From: Arbacia lixula
Lineage: Eukaryota; Echinodermata; Echinoidea; Arbacioida; Arbaciidae
DNA: 64,000 nt
Direction: 5' to 3'
NCBI GenBank assembly: GCA_963669155.1
Contig: OZ022589.1
Span: 21,754,886 to 21,818,885 of the forward strand
Shown: positions 19,674-57,821 of the stretch, in pieces
How the letters are laid out: every line of letters begins with the position of its first letter
Numbering within the stretch: the stretch's first letter is position 1
Made by a program: the position numbers and the translations under genes
The notes under the pieces: model-generated
Told to the model about the DNA's origin: nothing
Database searches by the model: none
Seen by the model: the letters and a program-made list of their open reading frames with translations, nothing else

Positions 19674-20087
19674 CTGAAGGACAATGCAGAACAATAGGAC
19701 CGTTAATAAACTCTGCTTTGTTTCTTTGGAAATTCGTATGGAATTCTCGCTTTCCTTCATACATTAATGAATCATTATGAATTATGAGTCCCCAAGATGT
19801 AAATTACTGCTGAGTTTATGCCTTGTAAAATGTTAGAAATATGTGGCTTGTTTGAGACCGAGTCTCCGCGAGACTAGACGGGTCTCTGAAAAGTCGTGAA
19901 TTCGAATGCGTTTGATTTTTTTTTCAAGTCTCCTGTAAGTCTCTGTAACTTATCAATGCTGTCCTTGCGACATCTCCACCAATGAGACGGACCTTTAACT
20001 CTTACATTACCATTCCCTGAAAACCACATTGGCTTACTACACATCTTCACGCCATTGCTCACGAGAGAGTTCACCCTTCAAGCTCAC

Positions 20088-20505: not shown

Positions 20506-20659
20506 CTAGAACAACTAAAAAAAATATACAACATTGAAACATGCATTATATCAACATATGACTTAACATAGGAAAATATAAATAGTGACTGATCGGCAAT
20601 AGCGACGATTAATAAAAAGCGGCACAACATGAGTATTGCAGAGATTTAAGTATAAACAA

Positions 20660-23929: not shown

Positions 23930-24990
23930 AAATGGAATTTGCCCCCTGGGGCCATTTGGGGCGCTACCCCCACATCCCGCCCCTTGCCACTTGAGTACCA
24001 CGATTGTAAGAACGTAAGGTCCCTATAGCCCATGGATCATTCCTATCAAGTTTGGTTAAAATCCAATTATTTATTCTTCTGAAAAAGTAAAAATAAGAGA
24101 AAGATGCATTTTTTTTTTTTTTTGGGGGGGGGGCCTACTCCCCCCATGACTCCTTGCCATTGGTGTTTCCCCATTCTAAATTCTAACAACTTAAGGTTGC
24201 TAATACTTAAGGATGGTTCCAGTTATTCATTCTTGAGAAAAGGTATTTAAAGAAAAGGAAAGTTTCCCCTGGGGCGTTCTGGGGGCTACCCCCCCCCCCC
24301 TTCCCAACACCTTGCTCCTTGTGTACCCCAAGTTTACCAACTGATAGTCTCTATTACCTAAAGATAATTCCTATCAAGTTTGGTTAAAATCCAGTTATTT
24401 ATTCTTCTGAAATAAGAGGAAGTTATGCATGGGGGCATTTTTTTTTTTTGGGGGGGGGGGGCTACCTACTCCCAGCTCCTTGCCATTTCTGTCCTCCATG
24501 CTAACAACCTAATGTCCCTAATACCTGAGGATGGTTCCAGTTATTTATTCTTGAGAAAAAGTATTTAAAAAATAAGAGAAAGTTTCCCCCTGGGGTGTTT
24601 TTGGGGCTACCCCCTTACCCAGCCCCTAACCGCTTGTACACCACAAGTTTAAGAACTAATGGTCCCTGTTTCCTCAGGATGATCCCTTTCTAGTTTGGTT
24701 AAAATCCATTTATTTATTCTTGAGAAAATGTCCCAAAATATGAGATAATGCCCCAGGGGCGCTTGGGGGCTACCCCACCCCCTTACCACTTATGACCACA
24801 CATTTGAACAAGGTAAGGTCCCTATTACCTACGGATGATTCCTTTCAAGGTTTTTTTTTATCAAGTCCGGCGGCGCGTTTCTTAAAGAATGAAAATTAAT
24901 ATATGAGGGCCCCTGGGGCACTTTAGAGGCTGCCCCCAGGTGCCCCTGAAAATATTTTGACATGCCTCTATAGGTAATACATGTATTGTT
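23930..24990. repeat. Homopolymer-rich minisatellite, ~160-180-bp units (copy 2)
   Basis: Same array as 8570-9300 with about seven units. The extra units (near 24120-24420) include a poly-C run at 24292-24300. The length difference of about 300 bp is expected for array slippage or unequal exchange between alleles. Confidence 0.85.
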
Positions 24991-25088
24991 CCAAATATAA
25001 TTTCATGCATGTGTGTCCAATTTGGTGCTTGTAGGCAAAAGTGCAATTTTTTTCACTTTATCCACCCCACCATACAGTACACACGTGT

Positions 25089-40100: not shown

Positions 40101-43100
40101 GAGGTCAAAGGTCAAATGAACATTGCCAAACTTTGCTAAACATTAAAAACAGAATATCATATTTTCATTTCACTTAGGAATTCACTGGAACATTCCCAAC
40201 CAAACAAACATATTTTCTGAGAATAATCTTAATAGAGCTAGCAAAGAGGCGGAGGCATATATATCGAATGCGTGGCAGTCGAATTGCTCTAGTTCATGTT
40301 TCAATGATTTGACGTGGTTTCTGTACCGGTCTTTGAAGGGGCCACCAATCAGACCATAGTAAAATTTCTTCTTGTTATCGTGTTTAATGGTGGCTTTGTA
40401 GACGATTGACTCTTCGAGGCAATTTCCTTGTAACGGGCATTGGGTTTTGGTTTGGTAATTGTACTTGGGTGGTGTTGTATCACGTACCGGCTTAATTGCA
40501 GATTGTCTAATGACTCTTTGATTGTGGGATTTTATTATTGTGTCCATGTTTCTCATACAGCTGTAGCTGACCTTTAGAGTGTTTTTGTTGAAGATCTGGT
40601 TCAATTTGTACCCCTTTGGGAAGTGTTTTGTTATCAATTTCAAGAATTTGCCCCCACGCTTGTCTTGATGTCTGCACTATATGGTGGGTTGAACCATGTG
40701 ATCTTCCGGTTCCTGGTTTTTCTTTTCTTTCTGTCCCTTTCTTCGTTTGGTTTAGTGTACTTTATGTCCATCTTGCAATCACTATTTTTCACTATTCCTC
40801 AAACGACGTCATATTCCGTAAACAGCTAAGTCCCTTCGCCCGAAACGGCGAATCCACTACATGTACAGTATCGGAGTATATTCGGTGATGCGTAAATAAT
40901 TCGATGCGAACGGCTCGCATTAAGCCGTTAGATCGTATTCTCCTTCCAGGCTGCCTGTACTATTCGAAATTGAAAACTATGTGCGCGTTGCGAGTTTGAA
41001 GCCGAAGTCCCTATCACAACACGACTGAAATGCTTGTAGCAAGCCTCACATACAAAATAGGAATGGTGCCGCTTTTGGGCTGCTTTCAGAAACCACGGGT
41101 TCTCCTCGATAAACTCAATTTTGCTTGGAGCGGGCAATTTAGATAGAGCTACGAAGTTCGACTGCAAGCAAGCGGCGCAAGCGGAGCTGACAGAGACAGC
41201 AACCCGGCGCTCCCCGGTAGCTGTTCCTTTGGATTCCGCTGCAGATGTGTTTTCCTCAACTGTGTACGTGCAGACTCTGTGCGAACGATTGCAGCACTTG
41301 TTCACTGAAGAATATTTCCCATCAACTGATGTTTTCATGTTACGAAAACATCATAAAATAATGGATCATATTTCCAATAGGACTGTAGCTAAAGCGATAA
41401 TACAAAGAAAACTGAATAACCGCTAACGATCATGTAGGATTGCGATGCTAGCTTGGGTGAGTGCGCTGGTGTGCATAGCGCATGCATTAACCGCTACGGT
41501 AAATGCGTATGTGTATTGTACGTGTTTGACGAATAATAATCCCGACGTATTGAATTAGGCTATCTGCATCACAATTTGAAAATTGAATGCTCGGGTACGG
41601 ATTCATTTTGTCAATAACAAAAGTTCCACCGGATAGATCATCTTTTAATTTTTCGTGATGAAACCTTAATACTGTTTAGTTAACATAATTCCTTTACACG
41701 ATAATTTAACCGGTGGCATTTTTAATGTGATTTTTTCAAATCATTTATTTGGTTTAAGGTCGCGGTTTGCCATTCACTTTGCACGCGTAGGCGAAAGTAG
41801 GTGAACCGAGGGAGGCTCGATGATTGCGACATATTCTCCATTTTCGGAGAACTTGTTCATTCTCCGATAACGGAGAAGGGCTCTGACTGGTAAAGCAGCG
41901 CCACCTTACAACCAAGCTCTGAAAAAAATGATAGAAATTGAAATCGATAACAAAACACTTCCCAAAGTGGCAAAAATTGAACCAACACGATAACAAAAAG
42001 AAATTTTACTATGGTCTGACTTGTGGCCCCTTTAAAGACCGGTGCAGAAACCACGTCAAATCACTCAAACATGAAAAATACAGAAATGAGATACAACTTT
42101 CTAAGTACATTTGGACATTGAAATAATCAAACACCCAGTACGCACTAACTTTGGACATCGCCAAGAAGTCAAGCACCAACACAAGAAAAAACGGATTGTG
42201 CAACCTTTGTCTCGAGGAGAAGTACCTCATCATAACAAGGACGCTATAAACCAAAAAACGGAGCTCCTGTCCAAGTGCAGACACCAGAACCGCCCACAAA
42301 GAAAACCACCCAAGCGACAAACAACTGATCTATCGCACTAAACGCACTACACACCAACCAATCAGTCGGCCTGAAGATCGTCCAGCCACAAGGACGTGAA
42401 ACCGTCGGTAGCCGAACCACTGATTATATATATTTATATACATTTTGTGTATGGATATTAATATCAATGATGCATAAAGAATTATGAGTTATTAGTTATC
42501 ATGGAAAAACTTTGGAAGACCCAACCTAGTAATATGTCGTCCTCGAATAAGCTAGTTTCGAATCCTGACGCCCATTCTCTTTCCCAGTGAATAAAAGAGA
42601 ATGTTAATGGTGGTCAGAGTGGAGCATATTAACTATTTGTACATTTACGTTGTAGAACATTTGAGAATAGATTACGAATAAGCACTTTTAGTACAACATG
42701 TTTCCTTACCTCCCATGCGATCTTATGAGTGGGATTAAAGCTTTGCTCAGACGGAGGGTTGCAAAGAGGTTGGTTTCTATGGTAAGCTGGGCGTGAACGA
42801 TGTCAGGTTCCGATGCATTAGTCTAATATTGAACAAAACAGAAAGGCGAAACATACGAATGCCAGGAAACTATACTGATTATACACATCATTAATGATTA
42901 GGATTAATTATATTGAAATTATTCATGCAATTACCTATGTCTGGGAGATATTCAGAAGTGAGGGGGATTCGGGTAGAAGGAAAGAGGGGCGGAAACTGAT
43001 TTGAATTAAATCGTGGAAATGGGGAGGTTGGATGGAAAGACAGTTTGAAGACAACATTTTAAATTGAAACATGAAACAAATGAGGAGATAAGGAGAGGAG

Positions 43101-46100
43101 AAGAAGCGCAACAAAAAAAGAAAGAAAGAAAGAAAAACGACATAAAAGTGAGAGGAAAAGGAGAGAAGATAAGCAAACATCTTTAATAGATAGGTTTACC
43201 TTAAATGAACGATAAAAGGTAGGAGAGCGAAAATATCTAGAAAGACAAACAGATATGAAACCGTGGAGCATACGACGGGCACAAAGAGGAGAAGAACAAA
43301 TGGGAGTAATTAGAAGGCGAGAAGTCAGAAGTGGATTTAAGAAAAGGGAGAAGGAAGAAAGACAAAAAAAAACATGAGGACAATCGAGTATGATGTTGAA
43401 GAATTCAGGAAGAGGCTGTATGAAAAAAAAAAGGAAATGGATAGAAGACCGGAAAGAACTAGGTGCAGGGACTAATTTCACAACAGACCACGGAAATGAC
43501 ATAAATGAAGCAATGACCACTTAATGAGAAAACATGACAGAATGTAAAGCTTCACATACAAGTATAGATGACTGTGGCGAATAAAACTGCACACAAAACA
43601 AACACGGAATAAAGCTGACATACACTTTCGGAGGAGACAATGATGAATGATAGGACCTGTATCAATTCGCAGTAGTAGTTGTAAATGTAGTTCTAGTTTT
43701 ATGAAGCGGAAATAATTCAGAAGATATTTTCGTTAAGAGGAAAACATGCAAATGCACGGTACGTTACCGGGAAAAGTATTCCTGCATTGTTGACCAAGAT
43801 GTCTAGGCCATCGTGGGTCTCCTTGAAGTACTTCGCTACTTTCTCAATGTGATCATTATTACAGATGTCCAGTTGGATGAATTTGGGGTGAAGCCCCTCC
43901 CCTTTTAAGGCGCGAACGGCCTCGTGGCCCCGCCCTTCATCGCGACTCGCGAGATACACCTCCCCATTGTCGCCGAAATGTTTGCAGAGCGCCCTCACAA
44001 TGGCATAGCCGATGCCTTTGTTGCCTCCAGTCACCTGAAATGACGCAATTTGAAATGAGATGACAGTAATGTTGGCAGTAGTATGTAATCTAATCATGAA
44101 TTCGTACTTACAACAAGATACTGTATTCATAATAATATAGCTTACATGATAGGTGAAAAATATATAAACGAAAACGCTTAGTTCCGATCCCATTTGTCTT
44201 TTCATAATTAAATAAGGCACAATTTATACAAATAAATTCTGGGCATCCTGAATGAGACGTGCATTATTTCTTAACCTTCTGAATGCCAAACAAAATGTTG
44301 CCCAATGGGATTTGCGAATGTAGGCTATTGTGGATACCCCCCCCCCCTGAAATGAGCCGTGTTAGTAATGCATTCACGTAGACCGTTTTTGTTATGTTTG
44401 CAAATTGTTATTCACGTGTAGGTTTCTTTGATGGTATGGCATGTGTGTATTAATGATTTGTTGTAGTTTGCCGCATATTTTCTTAGTAAAGTCTTGTCGA
44501 GGATGTTGTGAAATGGGTATCCTCTCGTCGATTTTCCACATGATATTCCATGATCATGATGAGTGGGAAAATGGAAAGAAAACACAACTTTTCTTGAACT
44601 TGTTTTTGGGGTCAGCTATCCTTTTCACATAAGCGTATTTGTTGATATTGTATTTTTATCTAGTGAGTAAAATAAATAAATATCTTGAATTCATTCACTT
44701 CTAAATGTTAACAAATTCGATTCCCTGAAAGCAGAGACTGGTAAAAATCACGTTTTTTGATGTTGTGTCTTACGTCTTTATGACGTAGAATTTTGACGTC
44801 AAATGTACGTCTTTTTTACATCATATATGTCATCTTTTTGACGTCACACATTAACATCTTTTAAGGCATCTTGTCATTAGTCTTTGCACTGGCGAAGCCG
44901 CGTATTGCTGAATAGGTTGTGTGTCTTTTATTTCTACCACACCATTGGTGAGTGCCCTTTTCATTCGCGCCGCAGGCGTTCAGTTTTTCGGGAAACCCGC
45001 ACACGTTCTCTCTAATCTTTTTGAGACAAACTTTGCTCGATTCCATAACCAACGTTTCTATATTGCTGATTTCGCATGAGCGCCCTCTATATATAGTCAC
45101 AACACTGGGGTTCTTTGCGATTCTGTAAAAATGAACTACGAAGTCCTCTCTCTTCTTCAGTGACCTGTAGGCCTACTTATATGCACCGCTTCAACAAATA
45201 TTTATAATTTCTGCTTGCAGGTTTCGGTAATAATAAGTTTCGTTGAATTCTAATTGTTTGATGGAACATACTTAACTATGAGCGAAAAACCTCCGCGTGC
45301 TCAATCATTTCAATAGTATGAGTGAGTTCATAACTTTGTTGCGGAGGAAAATTACCTTGCGACCTGCCAAAGTTGTAGGCACGATCAAGCTACTTGTTCT
45401 TGGGTGCGTCGCAGTATCACAACTATCCACAATCCTGACTTTTCACCATAAAGACCGTGAAGCTCTAAAAAGAAACAGTACTTAATTAACTATATGTGTT
45501 AAAAACACCAAGAAGCTCGCTCTTTATGATGAAACACAAATGTGGAATAGAGCACGAAACGCAGGATAGGGAATATAGCACCGAAGTGGTGACGCCACAT
45601 GAGCATGTTGCCTGGACAAACGGTTCAAACTCACTGCAGTGAGAGGCTTAGCGGTCCGATATTGTCTATCGGTTTAGTGTCGGGCAATTCCTATCACAGC
45701 CCCCGCTGTGATAATCGCTGTTTGTTCGACCCGCATAGTTTAGAACCAGTTGTCCCGGCAACTATGCTCAAACGACGTCACACCTCGGCACTCCATATCA
45801 CGCACTTAAAACTTATCATTAGTAAGTTATTACTAATAAAGAGACAGGAAGTGATTTTTTAATTGGCTTTTGAAGTTACTGATGGAATTAAGATTTTTTA
45901 TATTTGAATCAAAAGAGTTCCAAAATTTCGCTCCTTTAAACTGGATAGAATGCGATTGCGTTAGATGCAAACGACAGAACAGCAGGACAAAATTATCATT
46001 TTTACGAGTATTAAAAGTATGGGTTTGGGAATATTGTACAAAATAATCTGTAAAAACATGTGGCAATAACCCATCTGGAAGTTTGAAAACAAAAACTCCG

Positions 46101-49100
46101 AGTTTGAACGCTATGCGATCATGAATACTTATGTATGTTAGTATGTACTTCTTTGAAAAGTGGAGAAGAATGGGCAAGGTAATTTGAGTTAGTACTTAAT
46201 TGAATGGCTTTCTTCTGGAGAACAAATAAACGGGTTAGATTTTTTGAACTCGTGCCTGACCAGACCAGGCTACAATAATCCAGATAAGGCAGTATAAGGG
46301 CATTGTATATCGTACAAAGAATCTTATTTGGAAGAAATTCCACGTACTTTATAAAGCATCCCTAATGACATGCTAATCTTCCTGTAGATATGGTCCACAT
46401 GGTCATTCCACGAGAGTTTGTCGTCAATTATGATCCCCAAGAAATTTGTGGAATTTACCCTTGAAATAATACTATCATATCTAATAGTCATATTACACAA
46501 TGTAGTGGCCTTGGTCGACTGAAATAACATATATTTTGTCTTTTCTACATTTAGTTGTAATTTGTTGGCCTTAAACCAATCACATATATTTTTCAATTCA
46601 TCGTTCGCAATATGATTAATTTGCTCTTCATCAGAATGCGATACAAACAAATTTATATCATCAGCATATATTACAAAATTGAGGACACTCGACGAGTTTA
46701 TGATGTCATTTATATATACAAGGAACAAGAGTGGCCATAAGATACTTCCCTGCGGAACTCCACAATTCAACAACATGGTATTTGAGTTGACACCTTTAAA
46801 AGTAGTGTATTGTTTACGATTATGTAAGTAACTTTTGAACCATTGTAGTGGTATACCCCGGATTCCATAGAGATCAAGTTTGCTCAGTAAGATGGCATGG
46901 TCCAATGAATCGAACGCCTTACTCAAACCAATACATAAAGCAAGAGGCTTCTCTTTCTTATCTAAGAACGAGGTGATTTTTCCAGGGCATGAAGTAAAGC
47001 AGTCTCTGTTGAAAATAGAGGCCTAAACCCAAATTGTTCATTTATCAATACAATGTTATCCATCAAGTACTTATACAGTCGCTTATATACGATTCGTTCT
47101 AAAATCTTTGATAGAGCTGATAAGAGTGAAATGGGTCGATAATTTTCAATGAGACTTTCTTCCTTCTTTTTATACACAGGGACTACTTTAGCTATTTTAA
47201 AGGAATGGGGAGGGAGAAAATAGGGGAGGTAAAAAAAAATCATGCGAATTGGTGAGTGAGAGAGCCAAAAATGTCAAGAAAGGAAGTAAAAAAATGGGGA
47301 GTACACAAATTATTTTGGCGGAGATGTGAGTACCAGAATTCTCAAATAATGTCTTCACTCTCTTTTTCCTCATCTTTATTTTTCTCTTCCTCCCTCTCTC
47401 TTTCTCACACACACTCACTATCTCTGCATTTGTCCATGATATGCTCGCACCATTCACGTACGCTTCACAGCATACACAACGCACAAAACTCGTAGCACAT
47501 GACATAAAAAAATGCATATGGGACTTCGTACTGGGACATTGTGGGGGCAAAAAGTGTGATCTTGACCCGATTAAACACGAATGACCCCAACATGTACATT
47601 AAGGCAAGTCTCTGAAATGTTAGTATATAGTGTAGGTGCGCTATGAGCTTTCTTGAGCGGTGTATCTGATTGCTTATGAATAGATGGTGCATAGTGTCCA
47701 TATTGTAAAGGTGCATTTTCCAGCCCTGTCTGTGCATGAATTTGCCAATGCAGACCACCTTATACTGAGATTTTGCGAGACGAAAAATAAAACGCTCACG
47801 ATTTCTATAGAACGAGCGAGCGCTGCCGATTGACTGCTTAGGCAGGGAGGATTTACCTTTTTGTTGTGTTTAATTCCCCCCTCTTTGACGTAACTGTTGA
47901 AATAATCTCAGTCGGTCGGATTTCGATATATAGATTTAGTAATCATGGTTAGGGCTCTATGTCCTAAATTAGTTAAAATGCACACCGCATCAATGAAGTC
48001 CTTCCCTTCCACATTTCTTCTGAAAGCTTCTTCACGCTACCGTCAACCTATTCGTAACACCATAACAGTGTAAGCTTTGAAATGTCACTAAATTGCCCTC
48101 TTCCTTGGCAAGCATCGTGCTAATTTTCATTTCAGTACACATGACAGAATCCATGACAACAGTGTGTCGATAGTAACATTACACTTCCAATTTACTGTGG
48201 CAACAACGATGCGGCAACACCCCATGTTATTCTAAACAATATGGCGCTTATGATTGGATCAAATGAAATATACATTTACATTCTACACGTTTGACACAAA
48301 TTTACACTGCGTGAATTTTAACCAAAAGATATCAAAATAATTTTGAGAGGTGTAATGCTGTAATACAAATAACAGGCGCTAATTCAAACCATCATTAATA
48401 AAGTATGCAGAGTGTGTATATTCAGGTGATACATGTTGGTGCCTAAGAAGTAATTATAAGATGGGCTAAAGAATCTCTGTAATTTGATTGGTCAATTATC
48501 GTGCAAGAGTTTGTACTTATTGCTGCACAGTGAGATGTTGATACCACATCCAACCACCAGTGCAATGACAAACAAGCAGATTCTGATAGCTGAGGGTTCT
48601 GGCTAAGATAAAAACACGCAAAAATATTGTGGCTAAGGGGGGGGGGGGGGGGGGGGGGGTGGAGGTCTAGGTGGCCCACCGTCTACATGTATTTGCTGTT
48701 GGAATTGCAACCTCATTGCGTAGAACTATTATATTTCGCTATATATATACAACTCTATGTAGTGACGCCCCCTTCATTGCATTGTGCGGTGAATAAGGGT
48801 ACTCATACATGATCATGTTCTGTCTAAAAATCTCTTTGCGTTGAATAATTTCTTCTCGCTTGTCCTATAAAAACATGTCAAACACACTCTTACAAGCGAT
48901 AGTACAGTTTGTACAGTCCGTTTTTTTTTTGTCTTCTGTCCCTCAAATGTCCATTTTTTGTAGGAAATTGAGATGCACCGTACACCCCTCTAAAACGATT
49001 TTCCACCAAGATATTTCCACTATACCTTCAAACTCAACGGTTGGTATGTTTGTTTTATATCCCTTTTGTAAAACAATAACAAAACAAAAATAGTCGCACT

Positions 49101-50341
49101 TTTTCCTCCGTCTCGATATCGGTTCATCCCGGGGAAATGCGCGACACGCTATATAGATCTACGCGATGCATTTCTTTCCAGCTGCGTCTTTGTGTTTTAG
49201 AGGGAAAACCGGGGGGAAACCAGTGAGATCTAATGGTTATAAAAGGGGTCTAATTTCAAAATTATTTTCTTTTGGCATCCTAGATTCTATACTGATTTTC
49301 TGCTTACTCCAATGGCATGAATGGGGACTCTTAACTGATAACTGATAACTGATTATTAATGGTTCCAGTAAGGATTTCTGCTGGTCTTCTAATTGATCCA
49401 GTAGGGATTCCTACTGGTTTGTGCTGGTCTTGTACTGTTTTTTTAATGGATCCAGTAATGATTTCTAATATGACGTAATGTTCTTAAAAAGCCAGATAAT
49501 CCTAATCTGATATGTAATCGCAATCCCAATTCAATATATTCCTAATCCTACTATCACTTCAAGCAATCACTGTATAAACGAGGTGGTATATCATCACAGG
49601 ACGTTTACTAATTGAAACTTTTGTTAACTGAGATGCTCATGAATATTCATGAATATGTGAGGCCTATTCACGAATGTCATAATTTTGTACTTTTAAACAA
49701 ATAACCTCCACATAACGAGATAAAAGAAATATTAACGTATTTATACCAATAAATGATTTGAAGTTTAAATAGTGAATATCACCTACTTAAGTGAAGGCAA
49801 TAATGATAACAACAACGAAAAATGCTCTTCTCATGTAAGTTGTATAACCAATATCTTATGAACCTGTACTATTACATGAAAGTGTATGAAAGAAAGGGTA
49901 CGAGTAAGGATAGTAAGAGCCTGGTTTATTGGGTAGCTTGTCCTCCAAGCAGCTCTCAACTATATATGTATACTGACGACGATAACAAGATCAAAGCACA
50001 CCAATCATTAATGTCCAGTATTCTTTAATGATTAGAATACATGAAGAACAGTCAGAAGTAGTTATTGTAAATACACCGCTATAATAACCAAGACTGTATA
50101 TATGAGGCTGTAAGCTGTACAGAGTAGGTCTACACCTAGTGGTGGTATAGACTGGAGTGGATCACATATTCTGCTGAGTGCTGATGCAGCTTGGACATAC
50201 TAGGGAGGAACTTTAGCGGAGGAAGGATGCATTGTTTATGAGGGGCTGAAGGGAGGATTGACCAGTAGGATGGAGAGAGAGAGGAGGAGGAGTGTAGGTG
50301 GTCGGTTTGTTCTTGTCGATAATTGCCTGAGACTGGAGAGG

Positions 50342-50409
<68 letters not shown>

Positions 50410-51522
50410 AGAGAGAGAGCGAGAGAGAGAGTGTGTTGGGGATATTAAGGGAAGGGGTATAGTAAGATCTTACATTCGTCCCATCTTTCCAAAAGAGACG
50501 TCCTCGTCTCAACAAATTAACGCATGAGAAAATATGGGAATTGAGTAAAAACTTTTGAAAACATGCAAAATGATGAAGGGTGAAGGCTTGAGGGTACCCC
50601 ACAATGAGTAAAGGTATACCTATCATTGGACAGAGCAATGACCAAAGAGGCAAAATTCATATGACGCAAAGGGCCCTATGATGAGATATCCAAAACAATT
50701 TAACCAATACAATATAAGGAGAAACCAACACAGAGATATGTAAAAGAATTGCAACAATGGGCTATGTTTGTACTACAAAAGCTATAGTGAGGTTTACTAT
50801 AGAGCATAAATGTTTCAATGCTAAACTGATGATATGCATGGTTCAAACATGACAGAATTGTTTGCAACAAAACATAACGAAATATAAAACACAAAGCCAA
50901 ATAGAGAATGAATCCTGAACGCGCGCTTATTACAAAGTATCGACTTGTCGACTTAAATTGATCAAAACATGAAAACGGAAGCAATGACAACAAGATGTAA
51001 CAAATGAAATATAATGTTGAGGATGTGAACGTGAAGTAAACCGAAATTACTTTACTGTAACAGCAAATGGCAAACTTGATGTGACTGGAACAGCAAATTG
51101 TAACCATGAACATGGAAACATGGTTTAAGATACCAATCTAATGGTTCCAGTAGGGGTCCCTTCTGGTTTCTACTGGTATTCTACTGGTCTTCTATTGGAT
51201 TCAGAAGAGGTTTCTACTGGTATTCTACTATATATTATGTTTCTAATGGTTTCCACTTGAAATCATTTCACTTTTCATATTCAAACCAGTAGAAAATTTC
51301 CAGTATAGAAACCAGTACGAATCTCTATTGGACGCAGTAGAGATTCCTACTGGTTTCCATTGGCCTGCTGTTGGATTCATCCATTCTATTGGATACATAC
51401 ACTTAACTTTTCGAATATATGCCTATATAGAGAGCATATCTACTTCAAGCAATGGAGATTACAAAAGAGTGTGTTAAAAATTAATGATTACTCACCAGAG
51501 CAATTTTCTTTTCTCCTGTCAT
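34193..51522 (-). CDS. CBR1: Carbonyl reductase CBR-A (CBR1-like SDR), complete, six exons
   Basis: NADPH-dependent carbonyl reductase of the short-chain dehydrogenase family, expected to be a cytosolic monomer that reduces quinones, aldehydes and ketones. Coding exons (minus strand): 51522-51496, 44034-43768, 42822-42710, 35910-35785, 34694-34541, 34351-34193. All introns are GT-AG, phases agree, and the total is 846 nt or 281 residues (human CBR1 has 277). Motifs in order: VTGGNKGIG dinucleotide-binding loop (residues 10-18), NNAG (91-94), VVNLSS with the catalytic Ser (near 140), YGISK catalytic Tyr and Lys (near 200), CCPGY after the last intron, and C terminus AAEFW. The start is the first ATG (MTGEKKIAL) before the exon 1 donor. 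Introns are packed with transposon remnants. I found no clear poly(A) signal near the stop. Confidence 0.93.
35535..35784. other. Degenerate TTTGACC-rich segment beside CBR-A exon 4
   Basis: Repeated TTTGACCA/TTTGACCT words (about nine in 280 bp) form imperfect short tandem units in intron 4 right after the exon 4 donor. They resemble, but are not, the AGGTCA satellite; true AGGTCA spacing is not kept. Confidence 0.4.
36463..36728. repeat. Two tandem 138-bp units with an internal direct repeat
   Basis: Units start at TAGCCTTTAGCCAAGGCATT (36463 and 36601). Each also contains GTCTGCATACATAAGACTAT twice. The adjoining 36720-36950 is rich in CGCG and GCGCGA words, unlike the AT-rich surroundings. 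Lies in CBR-A intron 3. Open frames here are repeat artefacts. Confidence 0.85.
36730..37825. other. Non-coding interval in CBR-A intron 3
   Basis: CpG-rich at the left (36730-36960), then AT-rich. No exon or RNA gene is supported. A small frame at 37600-37866 has no recognisable family. Confidence 0.4.
37826..39425 (+). mobile_element. Tc1/mariner transposon, decayed
   Basis: The ends carry an imperfect inverted pair: AAGGTGGAATAAAATATTTT near 37845 and the inverse of AAGGTGGAGTATTTTTTTC near 39410. Between them is a plus-strand transposase remnant. Length and layout suit a Tc1-like element of about 1.6 kb. It is inside CBR-A intron 3. Confidence 0.75.
38170..39100 (+). pseudogene. Tc1-like transposase pseudogene
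   Basis: The N-terminal helix-turn-helix is clear in frame 38176 (MVALRQEGYKQTDIAEVL, RISQSAVSKILKRQRESG), followed by the basic PGRSRLTS linker. Later parts shift frame repeatedly: VVFTDESRFILCDE (first catalytic Asp region, near 38580), a tryptophan-rich middle, LQDDNA near 38800 (second Asp) and WPACSPDMNP near 38875 (region of the third catalytic residue). Several frameshifts and stops make it inactive. Confidence 0.85.
39400..40165. repeat. Satellite array with nuclear-receptor half-sites (orientation 2)
   Basis: The same family as 32870-33885 in inverse orientation, with about five units of 160-175 bp. Perfect triples AGGTCAGAGGTCAAAGGTCA occur at 39643-39662 and 39811-39830, a triple with one mismatch starts at 39984, and a double is at 40102-40114. 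It lies in intron 3 of CBR-A, between the Tc1 pseudogene and a Penelope-like fragment. Confidence 0.85.
40182..40643 (-). pseudogene. Penelope-like element, GIY-YIG endonuclease-region fragment
   Basis: The minus-strand frame has LPKG-type linker sequence, CPLQGNCLEESIVYKATI with its Cys spacing, then KKFYYGLIGGPFKDRYRNH. This is the zinc-linked GIY-YIG nuclease module found at the C terminus of Penelope-like retroelements (Y-x-G followed by Arg). The reverse transcriptase portion is absent. After KSLKHE the frame runs into unrelated sequence, so the 3' end is truncated near 40250. Confidence 0.8.
40928..41338 (-). CDS. Hypothetical 136-codon Cys-rich ORF
   Basis: An uninterrupted minus-strand frame in a region with less AT bias. 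It has Cys pairs (CAAC near residue 83 and CEAC within SYFVCEACYKHFSR near 105) that could form a zinc site. It lies between the two oppositely oriented Penelope-like fragments. I recognise no family; it may be an element-captured or decayed exon. Confidence 0.25.
   Translation of the reverse strand: MKTSVDGKYSSVNKCCNRSHRVCTYTVEENTSAAESKGTATGERRVAVSVSSACAACLQSNFVALSKLPAPSKIEFIEENPWFLKAAQKRHHSYFVCEACYKHFSRVVIGTSASNSQRAHSFQFRIVQAAWKENTI
41930..42330 (+). pseudogene. Penelope-like element fragment, opposite orientation
   Basis: It reads ITKHFPKWQKLNQHDNKKK, then FYYGLTCGPFKDRCRNHVKS and QLSKYIWTLK, followed after a frameshift by CNLCLEEKYLI and SKCRHQNR-type residues. This continues the GIY-YIG module to its normal end. 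Relative to 40182-40643 it lacks about 80 codons between KLNQ and HDNKKK, with a clean junction. It is in the reverse orientation to that copy. Confidence 0.75.
42950..43500. repeat. Purine-rich tract (polypyrimidine on the CBR-A sense strand)
   Basis: A strongly purine-biased plus strand (GAGG, GAAAG, AGGAAGAAAG words and an (AAAG)n run near 43115-43135), so the transcribed strand of CBR-A intron 2 is pyrimidine-rich just ahead of exon 3. Intron 2 of CBR-B has a CT tract in the equivalent place. Confidence 0.6.
44035..45573. other. CBR-A intron 1 part: non-coding with two CRE palindromes
   Basis: No exon supported. TGACGTCA palindromes occur at 44794-44801 and 44839-44846, amid extra TACGTC half-words (44771-44811). 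A poly-C run is at 44339-44347. A frame at 44861-45100 (minus) has no known family. Confidence 0.4.
45574..45797. mobile_element. MITE-like element, ACCGAAGTG family
   Basis: It starts with CACCGAAGTGGTGACGCCAC and ends with the inverse (GACGTCACACCTCGGCACTC). The interior matches 654-868 (GAGAGGCTTAGCGGTCCGATATTG; CGTAGTTTAGAACCAGTTGTC-like). It abuts the 3' end of the LINE at 45833. Confidence 0.7.
45833..47243 (-). pseudogene. Non-LTR retrotransposon with reverse transcriptase (5'-truncated, frameshifted)
   Basis: Minus-strand frames in order: 47243-46962 (KVVPVYKKKEESLIENYRP, ISLLSALSKILERIVYKRL: RT block 1-2), 46926-46324 (SKAFDSLDHAILLSKL, GVPQGSILWPLLFL, and VIYADDINLF with YADD near residue 88), then 46343-46119 and 46177-45833 (LPYLDYCSLVWSG and FNTRKNDN...AKFWNSF, the usual C-terminal tail). 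Motifs fit CR1/Jockey-type LINE reverse transcriptases. Frame breaks near 46965, 46330 and 46150. The endonuclease domain is missing, so it is a dead 5'-truncated copy in CBR-A intron 1. Confidence 0.9.
47580..47775 (+). mobile_element. Helentron-like element, 3'-end fragment
   Basis: Only the last ~190 bp of the family remain (GGCAAGTCTCTGAAATGTTAG to CAGACCACCTTATACT). The terminal palindrome is lost after ATACT. Confidence 0.6.
47776..49310. other. Non-coding interval in CBR-A intron 1
   Basis: No gene supported. A poly-G run at 48638-48659 creates proline/glycine frames. 47858-47885 resembles the right end of the 728-bp foldback element (TTTTTGTTGTGTTTAATTCC). Confidence 0.4.
49315..49480. 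repeat. Degenerate TACTGG-type short tandem repeat
   Basis: Phrases such as GGATTCCTACTGGTTT and GTGCTGGTCTTGTACTG repeat imperfectly. The same vocabulary fills 51135-51380 (TTTCTACTGGTATTCTACTGG). No coding signal. Confidence 0.6.
49630..49940. repeat. Interspersed repeat related to the flanks of the 32.9-33.9 kb satellite
   Basis: 49640-49740 matches 32745-32860, and 49815-49935 matches 33495-33620 (TGTTCTTCT..TGTAAGTTATA..CCAATAT; GTACGA..TAGGATAG). The two parts are adjacent here without the AGGTCA satellite between them. Confidence 0.6.
50340..50432. repeat. (GA)n microsatellite
   Basis: A nearly uninterrupted AG run of about 85 bp with a G9 run at 50400-50409. Open frames on both strands here are dipeptide artefacts. 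It lies 1.1 kb from CBR-A exon 1 within intron 1. Confidence 0.95.
51135..51380. repeat. Degenerate TACTGG-type short tandem repeat
   Basis: Second block of the vocabulary seen at 49315-49480, for example TTTCTACTGGTATTCTACTGG-like phrases and their inverse (AACCAGTAGAAAATTTCCAG). Some inverted pairs allow hairpins. Confidence 0.6.
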
Positions 51523-51572
51523 GATATTACACCGTCGCTCGATGTATTGCAGCCCGCAAATGAAGGCATCAG

Positions 51573-51587
51573 TCCGCGCGAATTTCT
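51573..51587. promoter_or_regulatory. 15-nt word shared by the upstream regions of both CBR first exons
   Basis: TCCGCGCGAATTTCT lies 51-65 bases upstream of the CBR-A ATG (inverse orientation relative to the gene). It also occurs at 11544-11558, 343-357 bases upstream of the candidate CBR-B ATG and about 57 bp before its TATA box. A chance 15-mer match between two such short regions is very unlikely. Its role is unknown. Confidence 0.35.
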
Positions 51588-51804
51588 GAGTGTGCAAACG
51601 TGCGTAAATTTCATGACGTATAGCCCCAATCGTTGTTTGAAGATTGTTAGGGCCCGAGACCACTGAAGTAGAAAAGTTTTTTCTAGTTCAGTGCCCGAGA
51701 CACTGATCTCTCCCACTGAACTATAGTGGTATAGTTCAGTGATCTCCCCATTACGTGAGAACAGCTGACCAATCACAATGTAGTTCGCATAATAGAACCG
51801 TAGT

Positions 51805-52110
51805 CCGTGCGGTCAGTTTTTAACTCCTTTTGCAATGTGATTTTTGCGACCTTCTTCTGTTCAGTCCCTTACTTTGTCATTCTCTTTGAGATTTTCTTTC
51901 CCATTTTTCCCCTCTCGCCCCTTGAAGTAGTGAGCACATACATGTGACCATTTAGGCAAGTCTCTTTCGTGAGTGCTGCTTCTGATTTCTAATGAATAGA
52001 TGGTGTCACCATGGAAGGTCCATGGTGTCACCGTGCATTACCGTCCCACATCTGTGCACGAATTTGCCAATACAGGCCACCTTAAACTTGTCCACAAACA
52101 GGGGTTCAAC
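51805..52110 (+). mobile_element. Helentron-like element, 3'-end fragment
   Basis: It matches the last ~300 bp of the family (from TTTTGCAATGTGATTTTTGC to AGGCCACCTTAAACTTGTCC), with a degenerate terminal palindrome. It lies about 280 bp from the first coding exon of CBR-A. Confidence 0.55.
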
Positions 52111-53195
52111 CCCCCCCCCCCCCTTAGACGTTCAACCCCCCTCTATTTTTGTTCAAATGTTATTTATACATTTTTTGTTTATTTATTTTTCTCTTGCTTG
52201 TGTCTTCCCAGAAGACGTTCTGGCATGTATCCCTACCTAATAATGTATGAGGCAAGATATTGTGCAGCGCCGGAAAAAACGTCATGACTTCTACCCCCCC
52301 CCCCCCCCCCCCCCCTACAGAGAGCACTTTCAGAGAGTGGGCGGGATAAAAAAAAAAAACTTATGGAAAAAACATCATCACAGGATGAGGACACAAAAAG
52401 TTTTCTTGTGGTTGCGTAACTTTCTTTTGGAATGCATTCAAACGAAGAGGTGCTTTCTGTACAGCAGCTCTAGCTGCTCCTTTTCTCTGTATTGTGATTT
52501 GGCTTCCTTTTTACTATGAATAGCACAAGAATCTCCTCCATGAATGTCATGGTTTTGGGTCAAAACACACTCAAGCATTTTGTGATTACGTAACAGATTC
52601 GCTTGTATTTTTTTCCTGCAGAAAACGCATTCTTCCTTTAGAATTCTATCTGTACGGAAAGATGATTGGAGAATGCATGAACGAGTAATTATTCATTTTC
52701 GGCAAAAGTTCATGTGCAATTAAAGCTCAACAGAATTTTTTTTACTACATTATGTCTCTGTAGAAGATACAAGGCAGAAATTTTCCTGGTACGGTTTCAC
52801 CACTATACCAATGTCGGCACGAAGTCAGCTTTGAAATATCGTTATATTAGGTTACTATATGACATAAGACCGACATTTATTTTCAAATAAGATCATGGAA
52901 ACATTATGAATGACCGGAAAGTTTCCTTCTTTATTCCTCTTGTCTCCCATCTCTTATTTGAAGTGTATTGAACTCAGTATTAAGGGCCTTGAGCCTGTGG
53001 GTCGACAACCTGGCTGTGTCTAGTCTACACACATTATTATTGTTTGCAAATCGTGCTCCCACATACTATCTGAATGAATACACTTGTAACCAAATGGTGC
53101 CCTTCACATTCACACTTTACTGTGGTGGCTATACTACCACAATCTAATTCACATGAATAATATAATATTACGTTGCACCGTGACAAAGCCAACTG
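52111..53195. other. Non-coding interval
   Basis: Poly-C runs at 52111-52123 and 52293-52314 produce proline-rich frames. Otherwise AT-rich with no exon supported. Confidence 0.4.
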
Positions 53196-53199
53196 ATGT

Positions 53200-53945
53200 T
53201 TCAACGTGAGCAAAACACCCTCCCCCTAATTATACTTAACCTTTTCTCAAAGAATGATTTTTTTACACATATCCAACAATGCAATCAAGGCATTTTCACC
53301 TTCCACGTACAAGAACACTCCTCGCCAATAGACTCTTCACATTTCACGGAACAAAATACTGGAACTCCTTGCACATAAACATAAGACAATCAGCCACTAT
53401 AAACACATTCAAAAGAAAAAAACAACAACGCATAAATGAACAATACATAAAATCTTATAAAATCTTGTAAATCTTGTAAAATAATAAAAGTAATACAAAT
53501 CGATACAAACAAATCAATCCTCCTACGTTCCTAACCACACACCACAAATACATCACAATGATTTAATTGATGCAGTGCTAATCTCATATCGACAACCACC
53601 CTCCCCCCCCCCTTCCCACCCTCCATCCCCGCTCCCTTCCCCTTGCCTTGTCTCTGATGGTTTCTTGTTATTATTAATTTCATCAATGTTTTATAGTTGA
53701 TTAATAATATTTGTTTGAAATATGTTTTGGTTCTAAGGGGTCCAGTTGACAAGCTCTGCTTTTTTGGACTCCTTACACACTCACCTTTGTCGTCATCATT
53801 ACAATTTGTACATTTTATATATTTATTTGATGTATGTTTTTGTGTAATATTTGTACTATTGATTGTATTTGTACTTATGATTGTATTTGTATTATCTAGT
53901 ATGAGTTGTGGAAAATAATAAATTGCAAAAAACAACTTACAAATA
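53200..53945 (+). mobile_element. LINE 3' end fragment (second family)
   Basis: The frames 53196-53378 and 53279-53470 overlap as one frameshifted tail: FHLPRTRTLLANRLFTFHGT, then KYWNSLHINIRQSATINTFKR. This is the C-terminal consensus of CR1/Jockey-like LINEs (LP..RT......F.G...WNSLP......FK). A 3' UTR follows to a T/A-rich end near 53945 (AATAATAAATTGCAAAAAAC). No reverse transcriptase remains. Confidence 0.75.
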
Positions 53946-53954
53946 AATTACAAA

Positions 53955-54500
53955 AATGAAAAATCGGACGTTTGTATGTGTAATGTCAATGGGAGGGTCA
54001 TTTATTTCAAATCATGAATTAACATGACGATCTGTTAGGAGCTGTGTATCGCCTGTGTTTGGATTTTTTTACTCTGAAAATTTAGTATGTTGTAGTTAGA
54101 TCTACTAGCTTTTGGGAACGTGGTCTCCATTTTGTATTAGATGTCGGAATCATGGCAAAATTTTAGCTTGAATATCGATTTTTAAATCATTCTAGCCAAT
54201 GCTGTGCATTAGGTGAATGGGAAGATGGGAGGATGAATTGAGGCCGTCGTAAGAACGAGCGACCAAGGTTCGATTGCTGGTGTTGGAAGGATCAAGTTTT
54301 CATTCCTTTAGGAATATTTATTTTGCCACCTTCTTCAGTTCTATCCCTCAGTTCTTCATTCTCTCTGAGATTTTCTTTCCCATTTTTCCCTTTCCCCCTT
54401 TATCTTCAATGACTTACATGTTGTTAGCACATACATGTGATCATTGAGACAAGTCTCTGAAATGTTAGTATGTTGTAGGTGTGAGTCGATGGTGAGTGAT
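53955..54500 (+). mobile_element. Helentron-like element, internal fragment
   Basis: It matches the second half of the 12468-14475 element (GTAATGTCAATGGGAGGGTCA to ATGTTAGTATGTTGTAGGTG) and stops before the 3' end. Non-coding. Confidence 0.5.
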
Positions 54501-54790
54501 TCTGTTCATACTCATTTGATCCTAGCTTCGCCAGCTAGATTCACGTACTGGTAGTACTTGGTGTTAATAAAAACTGTTGACACCTTTGAACAATGATTTC
54601 AAATATATCACAAATCGAATCAAGCTGAAATTGACTTATCATAAAGTCAAGAGATGTCAATTCTTTTCGAAGCAGGTTTCGTAGCATTTCACCAAGTCTT
54701 ATTCTTGAAATAATCCTTGGAATATACAATGAAGATTTGACATCCGGACAAATTTGGAACCTAAAATATGTGTGTATCAGCAAATTAATT

Positions 54791-55130
54791 CAGAACACAA
54801 CAATGTCATTGCGCACCACACATGTCAGCCCACAACTTTTCTGCCAGAAGCATCATGCATTATTAATGAAACTGTAATGGAAGTTGCTAGTAGATTGACA
54901 GGTATGATACACAATGGTCATCGTTGTGTTCTGAATGAATTATCCGTTTTTGTAATGTATTCACAATAGTCCCCTAACTGCCTGGTGACGTGTTATTACC
55001 TCACCTGTATTTCGTGATTCAGTTTCAATGGATGGAACGCACTGAATCTATTAGTTGTTGCTACTCGGACAAACCTTGGACAAGCTTTGGGTTTACCATT
55101 AATTACGTATTGTTTGAACGACATGAATGA
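54791..55130. mobile_element. Foldback/MITE relatives of 25885-26550
   Basis: 54791-54933 is an inverted-repeat element (CAGAACACAACAATG ... CATCGTTGTGTTCTG) like the nested unit at 26072-26218. 54960-55120 matches one arm of the outer element (CCCCTAACTGCCTGGTGACG to GGACAAGCTTTGGGTTTACC). The other outer arm is missing. Confidence 0.7.
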
Positions 55131-55207
55131 AATTTGCATACATAACAAAAATGGTCTATTGATGGAACACACGATATAGGTTATAGGTTACCAAAGCACA
55201 AAATTAT

Positions 55208-55304
55208 GACGGTTGTGTGTGTGGGGGAGGCGGGGGGAGGGGGAGGGTGCGATTAGATTGATCTCGTGTGACAGAAAGTGCGTATGCGGTATGTGCGTGT
55301 ATGT

Positions 55305-55365
<61 letters not shown>

Positions 55366-55445
55366 AAGGAGGGGGGGGGGGGGTCGACCCTCTTCCGTGG
55401 GTTAATGTGAGACAAAATGAGGAGTACCTTGGAACTGTATTATTA
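55208..55445. repeat. Microsatellite-bearing interspersed repeat (minus orientation)
   Basis: (GT)n at 55311-55362, flanked by the inverse of the sequences around 29862-29918 (TCGTGTGACAGAAAG on one side, AATGAGGAGTACCTTGGAAC on the other). Poly-G at 55372-55382. Confidence 0.75.
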
Positions 55446-55629
55446 TTTGTATTTGCGACCGACCGACCACGCAATTGGGTCTGTTTACAGTAAAGGGATA
55501 TTTTTGGCACAACTGAATCATTTACAATTATTACCACCTTGCACCACCCAAATGTGACTGAGTGTTGAATTAGTTTCCTCCAAAACCTGCTCTGAATGTT
55601 CATTTATTATATTTTTCTAAACTAAGCCT

Positions 55630-55725
55630 GTACGTATTTGCCATATCACGTTGGTCACGGGACAGATGAGTGTGTAATACAAACTCGTCTGTCCCGTGAC
55701 CAATGCCCTGTGGCAAATTTGTACA
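55630..55725. mobile_element. Short inverted-repeat element (~95 bp)
   Basis: TTTGCCATATCACGTTGGTC with ACGGGACAGATGAG pairs with CTCGTCTGTCCCGTGACCAA and TGCCCTGTGGCAAAT. The arms are about 40 bp with a loop of about 15. Non-coding, probable MITE remnant. Confidence 0.7.
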
Positions 55726-55979
55726 GTGCAAATTTTCTGAAAAGCACAAAATCTTGTAGGGCAAATCAATACATTTCTTTGATATTTTACTAGAATTGGA
55801 TGGCTTATTTAAGAGAACAAAAATATAAATGGAATTTAAGAGATTTGTGCAAATGTTACAGTAAATGTAACAGAAATGTACACAGGCCCAATTCTATCTT
55901 TGTAACTGTTTTTGTTTCTAAAGACACAATGTTCATATCAAATGACAGACCAATACTTTCACTGTATGGAATCAATGGT

Positions 55980-56166
55980 ATAGTCCTAGGCCTAATTTAA
56001 TTCAGATTCAAATACGAAAATGAGAATAAGCTTGCCTACAGAAACGTCTTAGACGTCATTCTCATTCTCGTATTTGATTTCTGATGATCCTTGTGCTATC
56101 ACGTCTACAATACATATTTTTCCTAAGAAATGACATTTTTATCTAATTCAATTAGGCCTAGGACCA
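55980..56166. mobile_element. MITE with ~26-bp terminal inverted repeats, 55 bp before CBR-B exon 2
   Basis: Starts TAGTCCTAGGCCTAATTTAA and ends TTCAATTAGGCCTAGGACCA. A second inner inverted pair (CAAATACGAAAATGAGAAT with ATTCTCATTCTCGTATTTG) is nested in it. It sits immediately ahead of the branch-point region of exon 2. Confidence 0.75.
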
Positions 56167-56220
56167 TACCATTCATTAATTTTATAATATCAATCTTATA
56201 ATATTTATTGTATATTACAG

Positions 56221-57604
56221 GTAACTGGGGCCAATAAAGGCATCGGTTTTGCAGCAGTGAGGGCGCTCTGCAAACATTTCGGCGACAATGGGGAGGTGTA
56301 TCTCGCGAGTCGCGATGAAGGGCGGGGCCACGAGGCCGTTCGCGTCTTAAAAGGGGAGGGGCTTAACCCCAAATTCATCCAACTCGACATCTGTAATAAT
56401 GATCACATCGAGAAAGTAGCGAAGTACTTCAAGGAGACCCACGATGGCCTAGACATCTTGGTCAACAATTCTGCAATAATGTTTAAAGTAAGTAGTGTAT
56501 TAGCATGTGGTTCACTTTAAATCATATTTGAAAATTCATGTCATCAGGCCTTATATAATGTTTTCATCACCACATCACGGTCTCGTTCTTGTACAATTTC
56601 TCCTTTATCCAAGTGACCCGTTTTGCTTCTCCTCCGCCTCCATACTTTTCCATATTTGTTATGGCCAAATGAAAGTTCTGCAAACAATGTGTGAGTTAGA
56701 GATGGACACCTGTACCAAGAGAGTCTCTTGTCACCAGTAATGTGCACCAGTGCATCACAGGAAGGGTTAATAAGTCAACATATACCAGATCCGTTTGATA
56801 TGCAAACAGCAGGTGTGCCTGTTTGGAGAAATTCGCAGTTGTAGGACAAGACAAATAATGATAAATTACATCATTACAGGTTATCAACCGGACAGAGACG
56901 ATAATAGGTCAAATCCAACGTGAAAAACTGTTCAGTCCTTAACACGAAATCTGCTATAATCATGAAATTCAATGCACAAGGCAGTACACAATGCCATTCC
57001 TAATTAAACGTAAGTATTTTATGCCGTTCTTTATCAGGGAATGATATACCCCATAACCTCATGCCTACCGTTAATATTAATTCTTAACTTTTTGCACCTT
57101 TGTTTGAACTTGATTTATAACGCGTTGCAGTGTACACATTTTTTGTTAATCTAAGTAAACAAATCATTATTGACATGATTAACAAGGTATCATGATTGTT
57201 TGCATATTCCCGTGCTGGTACCTAACGCCGATTTGAAGTGGAGCTTTTCATTTTGTAAAAACGTAATTTTATCACATAACATACGATCTGGCAGTATATT
57301 TATACTGAACTAACGAATGGTTGATCTTGAACCAACCTCGAATACAAATTGGCAAAAAGATGGTATCATGAATAATTAAAATTGTTCCCCATTCCTTCCG
57401 TCTCCCTCCCCCACCCCCACCCCCACCCCCCGCCTCTATCTCTGCTCTTATCTTGTCTCTTTTTTATCGTCTATCTCTCCATCTCTGTCTGTCCGTCTGT
57501 CTGTCTGTCTCTGTCTCTGTCTCTCTCCCTCTCCATGTCTCTCCCTCACCCACCTCTCCCCCCCTCTCTCTCTCTCTCTCTCTTCCCCTCTCTTTCCCCC
57601 TCCC

Positions 57605-57639
<35 letters not shown>

Positions 57640-57778
57640 TCTCCCTCTCTCTCCCCCTCTCTCTCTCTCATTCTCTCTCTCTCTCTCTCTCCCTCTCTCT
57701 CTCTCTTCCTTTCTCTCTTTCTCACCCTTCTCTCTCTCTCTCTCTCTCTCTCCATCTCTCCCTCTCTCTCCCCCTCCC

Positions 57779-57821
<43 letters not shown>

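What the first reader, a model, noticed from the sequence alone, without database searches (positions are those of the whole stretch)
43786..56469. Gene-conversion-like tract in exon 2 of the two inverted carbonyl reductase genes
Within exon 2, CBR-A 43998-43786 and CBR-B 56257-56469 (213 bp) differ at only 4 positions, including almost all synonymous sites. The first 36 bp of the same exon differ at about 10 positions, the last 18 bp at more than half, and exons 3-6 at many sites. Selection on protein sequence cannot explain silent-site identity with such sharp edges; ectopic conversion between inverted paralogues can.
Basis: partly seen in the sequence, partly recalled or inferred. Interest (0 to 1): 0.75.

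Follow-up and report, generated by a model that had tools for sequence, protein, structure and literature searches.

The report
Exon patches copied between reductase genes
Three neighbouring carbonyl reductase genes that otherwise differ at about a third of their bases share nearly identical patches inside exon 2, best explained by recent DNA copying between the genes (gene conversion); the process is well known, but this is a clean, three-way example in genes otherwise so different.

Summary
In detail: A 43998-43786 (-) and B 56257-56469 (+) differ at 4 of 213 positions; the first 36 bp of exon 2 differ at 10 and the last 18 bp at 9. Silent divergence falls from saturation in exons 3-6 (A-B dS 1.65; 53 of 110 same-amino-acid codons differ) to 0.046 in the tract (2 of 69). 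Protein constraint and codon bias do not explain this.

The whole genome adds a third gene, C, left of the window, and its allele D on an unplaced contig. The right part of the tract (116-121 bp) is nearly identical in A, B, C and D. The left part is identical only in A and B; in codons 13-41 C differs at 21 of 87 positions, dS 1.29. So this is a nested mosaic of at least three genes, not a private A-B exchange. Its age resembles that of alleles C and D (dS 0.049), on few sites. Distant paralogues E and F show no such runs.

Best reading: recent interlocus gene conversion centred on exon 2. Direction is unresolved and topology tests are uninformative. No reads or orthologues could be checked. 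A known kind of event, well resolved here.

The parts
43786..43998 (-). Gene A, homogenised tract of exon 2 (213 bp, exon positions 37-249), 4 differences from B
56257..56469 (+). Gene B, homogenised tract of exon 2 (213 bp), 4 differences from A
43781..43901 (-). Gene A, core shared with third gene C and allele D (exon positions 134-254, 121 bp, 3 differences to each of C and D)
   Evidence: window positions converted from exon coordinates
56354..56469 (+). Gene B, core shared with C/D (exon positions 134-249, 116 bp, 4 differences to each of C and D)
   Evidence: window positions converted from exon coordinates
43911..43998 (-). Gene A, left part of the tract (exon positions 37-124), identical to B over 88 bp but with 22 differences from C
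   Evidence: codons 13-41
56257..56344 (+). Gene B, left part of the tract (exon positions 37-124), identical to A over 88 bp
43768..44034 (-). Gene A exon 2, whole (267 bp, 89 codons)
56221..56487 (+). Gene B exon 2, whole (267 bp, 89 codons)
51496..51522 (-). Gene A, probable exon 1 (MTGEKKIAL, then GTGAGT); compare C MSGGRTIAL and D MSGVRTIAL
   Evidence: pattern search, not confirmed by transcripts
42710..42822 (-). Gene A exon 3
35785..35910 (-). Gene A exon 4
34541..34694 (-). Gene A exon 5
34193..34351 (-). Gene A exon 6 with stop codon
57844..57956 (+). Gene B exon 3
58398..58523 (+). Gene B exon 4; 58484-58524 (its last 40 bases and the first intron base) is identical to C and D, a weaker second island
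58948..59107 (+). Gene B exon 5
60039..60200 (+). Gene B exon 6 with stop codon

Best explanation
Exon 2 of a linked cluster of three carbonyl reductase genes (A and B in the window, C with its exon 2 about 11.7 kb left of it) has been homogenised by recent non-allelic (interlocus) gene conversion. At least two transfers are needed: one between A and B covering about 213 bp (exon 2 positions 37-249), and one linking C with A or B covering about 116-121 bp (positions 134 to 249-254). A break in exon 2 of one gene was probably repaired by copying the paralogous exon (synthesis-dependent strand annealing is the usual route). Copying stayed mainly within the exon because the flanking introns have lost most or all similarity. 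Shown: the silent-site trough, its edges, the nesting, the third gene, and the similarity to allelic divergence. Inferred: the repair pathway, the number and order of events, and that they happened by DNA templating.
For: A-B dS is 1.65 in exons 3-6, 1.38 in codons 1-12, 0.000 in codons 13-41 and 0.086 in codons 42-83; A-C dS is 1.46, 0.42, 1.29 and 0.000 in the same parts (A-D 0.041 in the last). Silent differences among same-amino-acid codons: A-B tract 2 of 69 against 53 of 110 in exons 3-6; core A-C 0 of 37 against 51 of 110, A-D 1 of 38 against 52 of 112, B-C 2 of 38 against 52 of 119, B-D 3 of 39 against 51 of 121. Permutations on silently matching codons, six sequences: A-B 1, A-C 0, A-D 0 of 10,000 shuffles. 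None of eight comparisons with E or F is significant. The core is the part of exon 2 with more amino-acid change relative to E (A-E 22 of 42 residues, dN 0.445, against 6 of 29, dN 0.160, in codons 13-41), so protein constraint predicts the opposite pattern. Codon choice in the tract is mixed (AAA and AAG, AAT and AAC, four Val codons, five Leu codons), so codon bias cannot force matches. For A-B and B-C the sequence next to exon 2 in intron 1 (60 bp) and intron 2 (150 bp) aligns no better, or hardly better, than shuffled sequence (13 to 120 of 200 shuffles as good). A search with the core returned four places, A, B, C and D (4 candidates scored). Tract lengths fit published estimates, mostly 50 to several hundred bp (PMC3924818, passages).
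Against: Topology tests do not distinguish the three groupings of A, B and C in any partition (all AU P above 0.2), so the case rests on branch lengths and runs. Third positions in codons 13-83 are also somewhat more conserved than exons 3-6 relative to E (A-E 33 of 71 against 115 of 176, P = 0.0095; B-E P = 0.014; C-E P = 0.046) though not relative to F; exon 2 may evolve a little more slowly at silent sites, far too little to explain 2 of 71. With strictly silent columns the runs are weaker: A-B 8 and 0, A-C 21 and 180, B-C 3049 and 1132 of 10,000 (six and four sequences; A-D 63, B-D 2584 with six), so B-C is not significant that way, although its core contrasts with exons 3-6 (P = 3.9e-7). 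A and C are less cleanly bounded than A and B: codons 1-12 have dS 0.42, and the first 150 bp of intron 2 of A still align with C and D (100 and 101 identities in 166 and 167 gapped columns, 0 of 200 shuffles as good). That pair may be closer kin or may have had an older, longer exchange. The genes are only about 67-71% identical in exons 3-6, below the 80% above which conversion is said mainly to occur (PMC3924818). No orthologues or reads were available.
Confidence: 0.9

Rival explanations
1. DNA- or RNA-level purifying selection (a synonymous-site constraint element such as a splicing enhancer, structured RNA or overlapping element) keeps exon 2 identical in A, B and C without exchange.
For: The core is almost identical at silent sites in three genes. 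Exon 2 third positions are mildly more conserved even relative to E.
Against: In codons 13-41 A and B are identical but C differs at 11 of 24 same-amino-acid codons, so no constraint common to the three genes exists there. In the core, E differs from A at 7 of 20 silent codons and 22 of 42 residues. At gathering thresholds Rfam finds only two tRNA matches in the window. Constraint does not predict four consecutive mismatches at the edges.
Confidence: 0.04
2. Assembly or polishing artefact: reads of one paralogue were used to build or correct the other.
For: The assembly is imperfect nearby: a collinear duplication of about 14 kb (offset about 16.1 kb, blocks 92-96% identical) spans an N gap at 9418-9617, and an unplaced contig carries more of the other haplotype.
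Against: A and B are not identical: at the four differing sites C shares the A base at three and the B base at one. The core is also present on a separate contig (C507). At 24% local divergence, reads of one gene would hardly be mapped on the other to correct it (inference). The duplicated stretch ends at about window 25085, before A and B.
Confidence: 0.04
3. Persistent island (a variant of the best explanation, scored apart): exon 2 has been converted again and again since the genes duplicated, and the present tracts are the shrinking remains of a once longer zone of concerted evolution, instead of fresh conversion between already diverged genes.
For: Conversion between sequences about 70% identical is expected to be rare (PMC3924818 and PMC3758752), while an island that stays identical keeps recombining (inference). 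The shorter core nested in a longer A-B tract, the residual A-C similarity in intron 2 and a weaker B-C/D island at the end of exon 4 would fit.
Against: Edges are sharp: four consecutive mismatches at positions 33-36 (A-B) and at 121-124 (A-C). Codons 13-41 of C are saturated relative to A and B, so the A-B extension arose or continued without C. One genome cannot separate the two histories.
Confidence: 0.4
4. RNA- or cDNA-templated repair: a spliced transcript of one gene, or its reverse transcript, served as template, which would explain why mainly exon sequence is homogenised.
For: The A-B and B-C tracts lie inside exon 2 beside unalignable introns. With six sequences the B-C and B-D silent runs nominally span the exon 4-5 junction (codon indices 150-194 and 142-194; 23 and 0 of 10,000). 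A reverse transcriptase fragment lies in the probable first intron of A (46324-46923), but such elements are common in animal genomes (recalled).
Against: The junction-spanning run arises because a differing codon just after the junction (GCG in B, GCT in C and D) was left out for a gap in F; with E alone as outgroup the B-C run stops there. No intron is missing between exons 2-6 in A, B, C or D. Ordinary conversion explains exon restriction by intron divergence alone.
Confidence: 0.04

Closest known systems
Exon-restricted interlocus gene conversion in GOT1Sd/GOT1Sr of the copepod Tigriopus californicus (PMC3728101; passages read)
   Same: [quoted passage not shown] GENECONV and sliding divergence were used.
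   Different: There several populations were compared and divergence within the pairs was moderate; here one genome, three genes, and silent-site saturation outside the tracts.
Interlocus gene conversion between duplicated genes in general (PMC3924818, passages; PMC3758752, section 3.2 and passages)
   Same: Tract lengths of about 116-213 bp lie within the reported range, mostly 50 to several hundred bp; the genes are linked on one contig.
   Different: Identity in exons 3-6 is about 67-71%, below the 80% named as usual. The longest exact run today is 88 bp (A-B), below the minimal identity lengths quoted for mouse (132-232 bp).
Carbonyl reductase 1/3 (CBR1, CBR3; short-chain dehydrogenase family, Pfam PF00106)
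   Same: Protein B matches carbonyl reductase/20beta-hydroxysteroid dehydrogenase 1n5d (E 1.6e-60), CBR1 1wma (1.2e-58) and CBR3 2hrb (1.8e-57) along most of its length; A and B match PF00106.
   Different: B reads NNSA where A, C, D, E and F read NNAG (that NNAG is a family motif is recalled; 1n5d reads NNAA). Enzyme activity is untested.

Membership tests
Interlocus gene conversion | Tract of markedly lower silent divergence than the rest of the same gene pair, with definite edges | tested here: met
   edges least tidy for A-C
Interlocus gene conversion | Runs of matching sites longer than chance (Sawyer-type permutation) | tested here: met
   A-B and A-C/A-D; B-C in the core not significant with strictly silent columns
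Interlocus gene conversion | No such signal in more distant paralogues | tested here: met
   AE, BE, CE, DE, AF, BF, CF, EF longest runs 3-6; 1391 to 9530 of 10,000 shuffles reach them
Interlocus gene conversion | Tree of the tract conflicts with the tree of the rest of the gene | tested here: inconclusive
   no topology rejected in any of four partitions
Interlocus gene conversion | Tract clusters by species, not by orthologue, in a related species | not testable with these tools
   states that this genome has no relatives here
Carbonyl reductase 1/3-like short-chain dehydrogenase | Near full-length similarity to solved CBR1/CBR3 | tested here: met
   residues 1-272 of B against 9-274 of 1n5d
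Carbonyl reductase 1/3-like short-chain dehydrogenase | Glycine-rich cofactor motif and catalytic Ser, Tyr, Lys (motifs recalled) | tested here: met
   Translations show VTG-NKGIG, VN-(S or A)S and YG-SK in A and B
Carbonyl reductase 1/3-like short-chain dehydrogenase | NADPH-dependent carbonyl reduction | not tested
   Needs the purified protein

The most novel reading that the evidence does not exclude
Short exon islands can be exchanged again and again among at least three genes whose remaining sequence is saturated with differences, recently enough that the exchange should still be segregating in the population (tract dS about equals allelic dS). If so, rejection of mismatched strands is bypassed locally: either the islands sustain themselves because they stay identical, or breaks are focused nearby. 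Intron 2 of B holds a 200-bp stretch that is 98% pyrimidine and that of A one of 79.5%, against 60.5% in C and 59% in D; such tracts can form unusual DNA structures (recalled) and may promote breaks.
Probability: 0.3. Interest if true: 0.55.

Novelty: new member of a known kind. Interest (0 to 1): 0.38.

Why it matters
It is a compact natural test of how much homology conversion needs: three linked genes, exons about 70% identical outside the islands, introns mostly beyond alignment, and an allelic yardstick in the same assembly. It also warns that gene trees or orthology calls made from exon 2 of this family could mislead.

Tried and rejected
Topology tests were tried as a direct test of conversion; they do not discriminate. 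Direction of transfer: GC3 of tract codons 13-41 (21 of 29) was set beside exons 3-6 of B (119 of 186) and A (106 of 183); this leans towards B as donor but is too weak to claim. A longer B-C/D run in exons 4-5 partly reflects codons dropped for gaps in E and F; I keep only the 41 identical bases at the end of exon 4 as a weaker island. No convincing exon 1 of B was found. My exon blocks count the exon 4 / exon 5 junction codon twice (AGG and AGT); both are the same in A-D and only lower the exon 3-6 divergence slightly. Naming the organism was not done; one paper search on a guessed sea star (listing only) gave nothing usable, so I call it an unnamed animal. Papers: the only search naming carbonyl reductase listed three papers with both terms, none on this subject by title (listing only); searched gene conversion more widely (listings; one search found none). 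PMC3924837 was searched for passages and gave one off-topic. This covers only the held open-access library.

Full report
THE OBSERVATION. The window is part of an unnamed animal genome of 607 Mb held as G000 (C14:21754886-21818885). Exon 2 of gene A (44034-43768, minus) and of gene B (56221-56487, plus) are each 267 bp and open in the same frame. Exons 3-6 differ at 181 of 549 aligned bases. A self-comparison of the window gives an A-B match at these coordinates that hardly leaves the exon.

A THIRD GENE. The tract matches five places in the genome: B, A, C507:4550-4762 and C14:21743219-21743431 (both 87%), and a distant one at C14:7507392 (68%). Gene C (C14:21743183-21746746, plus) has the same exon structure in exons 2-6 as A and B. 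C507 is a 13 kb unplaced contig. I take its gene D for an allele of C and not another paralogue, for three reasons. Its main blocks align with the C region at 89-96%. Its right end matches window 9718-12219 at 99.96%. The sequence left of the N gap at 9418-9617 and that right of it are collinear for about 14 kb in blocks of 92-96%. This looks like two haplotypes of one region laid end to end in C14. E (C14:7507350-7512472) and F (within C14:3350500-3366500) are outgroups.

THE NESTED MOSAIC. By exon 2 position: A and B agree over 37-249 with 4 differences. A agrees over 134-254 with C (differences at 145, 216, 223) and D (145, 223, 238). B agrees over 134-249 with C (165, 189, 216, 223) and D (165, 189, 223, 238). 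In codons 13-41 A and B are identical at all 87 bases, whereas C differs from both at 21, dS 1.29. Outside, A-B, A-C and B-C dS are 1.65, 1.46 and 1.36 in exons 3-6. So the right half is common to all three genes, and the left half to A and B alone.

STATISTICS. Silent differences among codons for the same amino acid: A-B tract 2 of 69, exons 3-6 53 of 110; core A-C 0 of 37 against 51 of 110; core B-C 2 of 38 against 52 of 119. Sawyer-type permutation on silently matching codons (six sequences): A-B 1, A-C 0 of 10,000. With strictly silent columns A-B has 8, A-C 21, A-D 63, B-C 3049 and B-D 2584 of 10,000; with four sequences A-B 0, A-C 180, B-C 1132. In eight control pairs with E or F the longest run is 3-6 codons, never significant. 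No formal correction for several pairs and filters was made; A-B stands in any case, A-C is weaker under the strictest filter with four sequences, and B-C rests on its contrast with exons 3-6 (P = 3.9e-7).

ALTERNATIVES. Protein constraint predicts that the core is well conserved in the family; relative to E it is less conserved than codons 13-41 (22 of 42 residues differ, dN 0.445, against 6 of 29, dN 0.160). Codon bias fails because the tract uses mixed codons for Lys, Asn, Val, Leu and Asp. A silent constraint common to the three genes fails in codons 13-41, where C is saturated. A mild slow-down of exon 2 silent sites exists relative to E (33 of 71 against 115 of 176, P = 0.0095 for A-E) but not relative to F. 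Topology tests reject nothing. An assembly artefact is unlikely given the differences between A and B and a separate contig with the same core, but reads were not available.

THE FLANKS. Next to exon 2, A-B and B-C introns align no better, or hardly better, than shuffled sequence. The first 150 bp of intron 2 of A do still align with C and D (100 of 166 and 101 of 167 columns identical; 0 of 200 shuffles as good). With A-C dS 0.42 in codons 1-12 this hints at closer kinship of A and C, or at an older and longer exchange beneath the recent one.

AGE AND MECHANISM. The A-B tract has dS 0.046 (two silent codon differences); alleles C and D have 0.049 in exons 3-6 (5 of 168). On these few sites the exchange is about as old as the alleles in this individual, and may still be polymorphic. 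The tracts (116-213 bp) fit the range, mostly 50 to several hundred bp, reported for interlocus conversion (PMC3924818, passages). The same review says that conversion occurs mainly above 80% identity and at low rate below; PMC3758752 (section 3.2 read) quotes minimal identity lengths of 132-232 bp for mouse. Here exons 3-6 are 67-71% identical, and the longest exact run is now 88 bp. Either the islands have been kept alike by repeated exchange while the rest diverged, or rare events between diverged exons were fixed; one genome cannot tell. Exon 2 is the longest of exons 2-6 in A-D (267 bp against 111-162 bp of aligned codons in exons 3-6), so it is the likeliest to hold enough homology (inference). 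Exon-restricted conversion beside a diverged intron is described in copepod GOT1 genes (PMC3728101, passages).

GENES. B matches solved CBR1 and CBR3 along most of its length, and A and B match PF00106. Reading frames of exons 2-6 are open in A, B, C and D. Probable first exons were found for A, C and D but not for B.

VERDICT.

Noticed in passing
1-9417 and 16082-25085, N gap at 9418-9617; C507:1-13123: Probable false haplotype duplication: two alleles of one region laid end to end in the assembly (about 14 kb collinear, blocks of 92-96%), with more of the second haplotype on unplaced contig C507. True distances between C and A or B would be about 16 kb less than the coordinates suggest.
   Followed up: yes
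58484-58524 (end of B exon 4) with C and D: 41 aligned bases (40 of exon 4 and the first of the intron) are identical in B, C and D while A differs at four of them; a possible second, weaker conversion island.
   Followed up: partly
43618-43767 (start of intron 2 of A): About 150 bp still align with intron 2 of C and D (0 of 200 shuffles as good), unlike A-B or B-C.
   Followed up: partly
57382-57843: Pyrimidine-rich CT tract directly before B exon 3; the best 200 bp of this intron are 98% pyrimidine. Intron 2 of A is also pyrimidine-rich (best 200 bp 79.5%), those of C and D less (60.5%, 59%).
   Followed up: partly
46324-46923, minus strand: Reverse transcriptase fragment (PF00078, E 1.5e-20) in the probable first intron of A.
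   Followed up: no
1-60 and 16071-16139, minus strand: Two tRNA matches that lie about 16.1 kb apart and so are probably the two allelic copies of one gene in the haplotype duplication; ARAGORN calls the second tRNA-Thr (GGT).
   Followed up: no
40293-40384 and 42075-41984; 59251-59546: An inverted 92-bp repeat (92%) in intron 3 of A and an inverted repeat of about 300 bp (76%) in intron 5 of B.
   Followed up: no
56470-56475: B reads NNSA where A, C, D, E and F read NNAG; the changed residues lie just outside the converted tract.
   Followed up: no
L041 1026-1202 and 3112-3288, minus strand: Cluster F, about 18 Mb away on the same contig, holds two copies of a last exon of a related reductase.
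   Followed up: no
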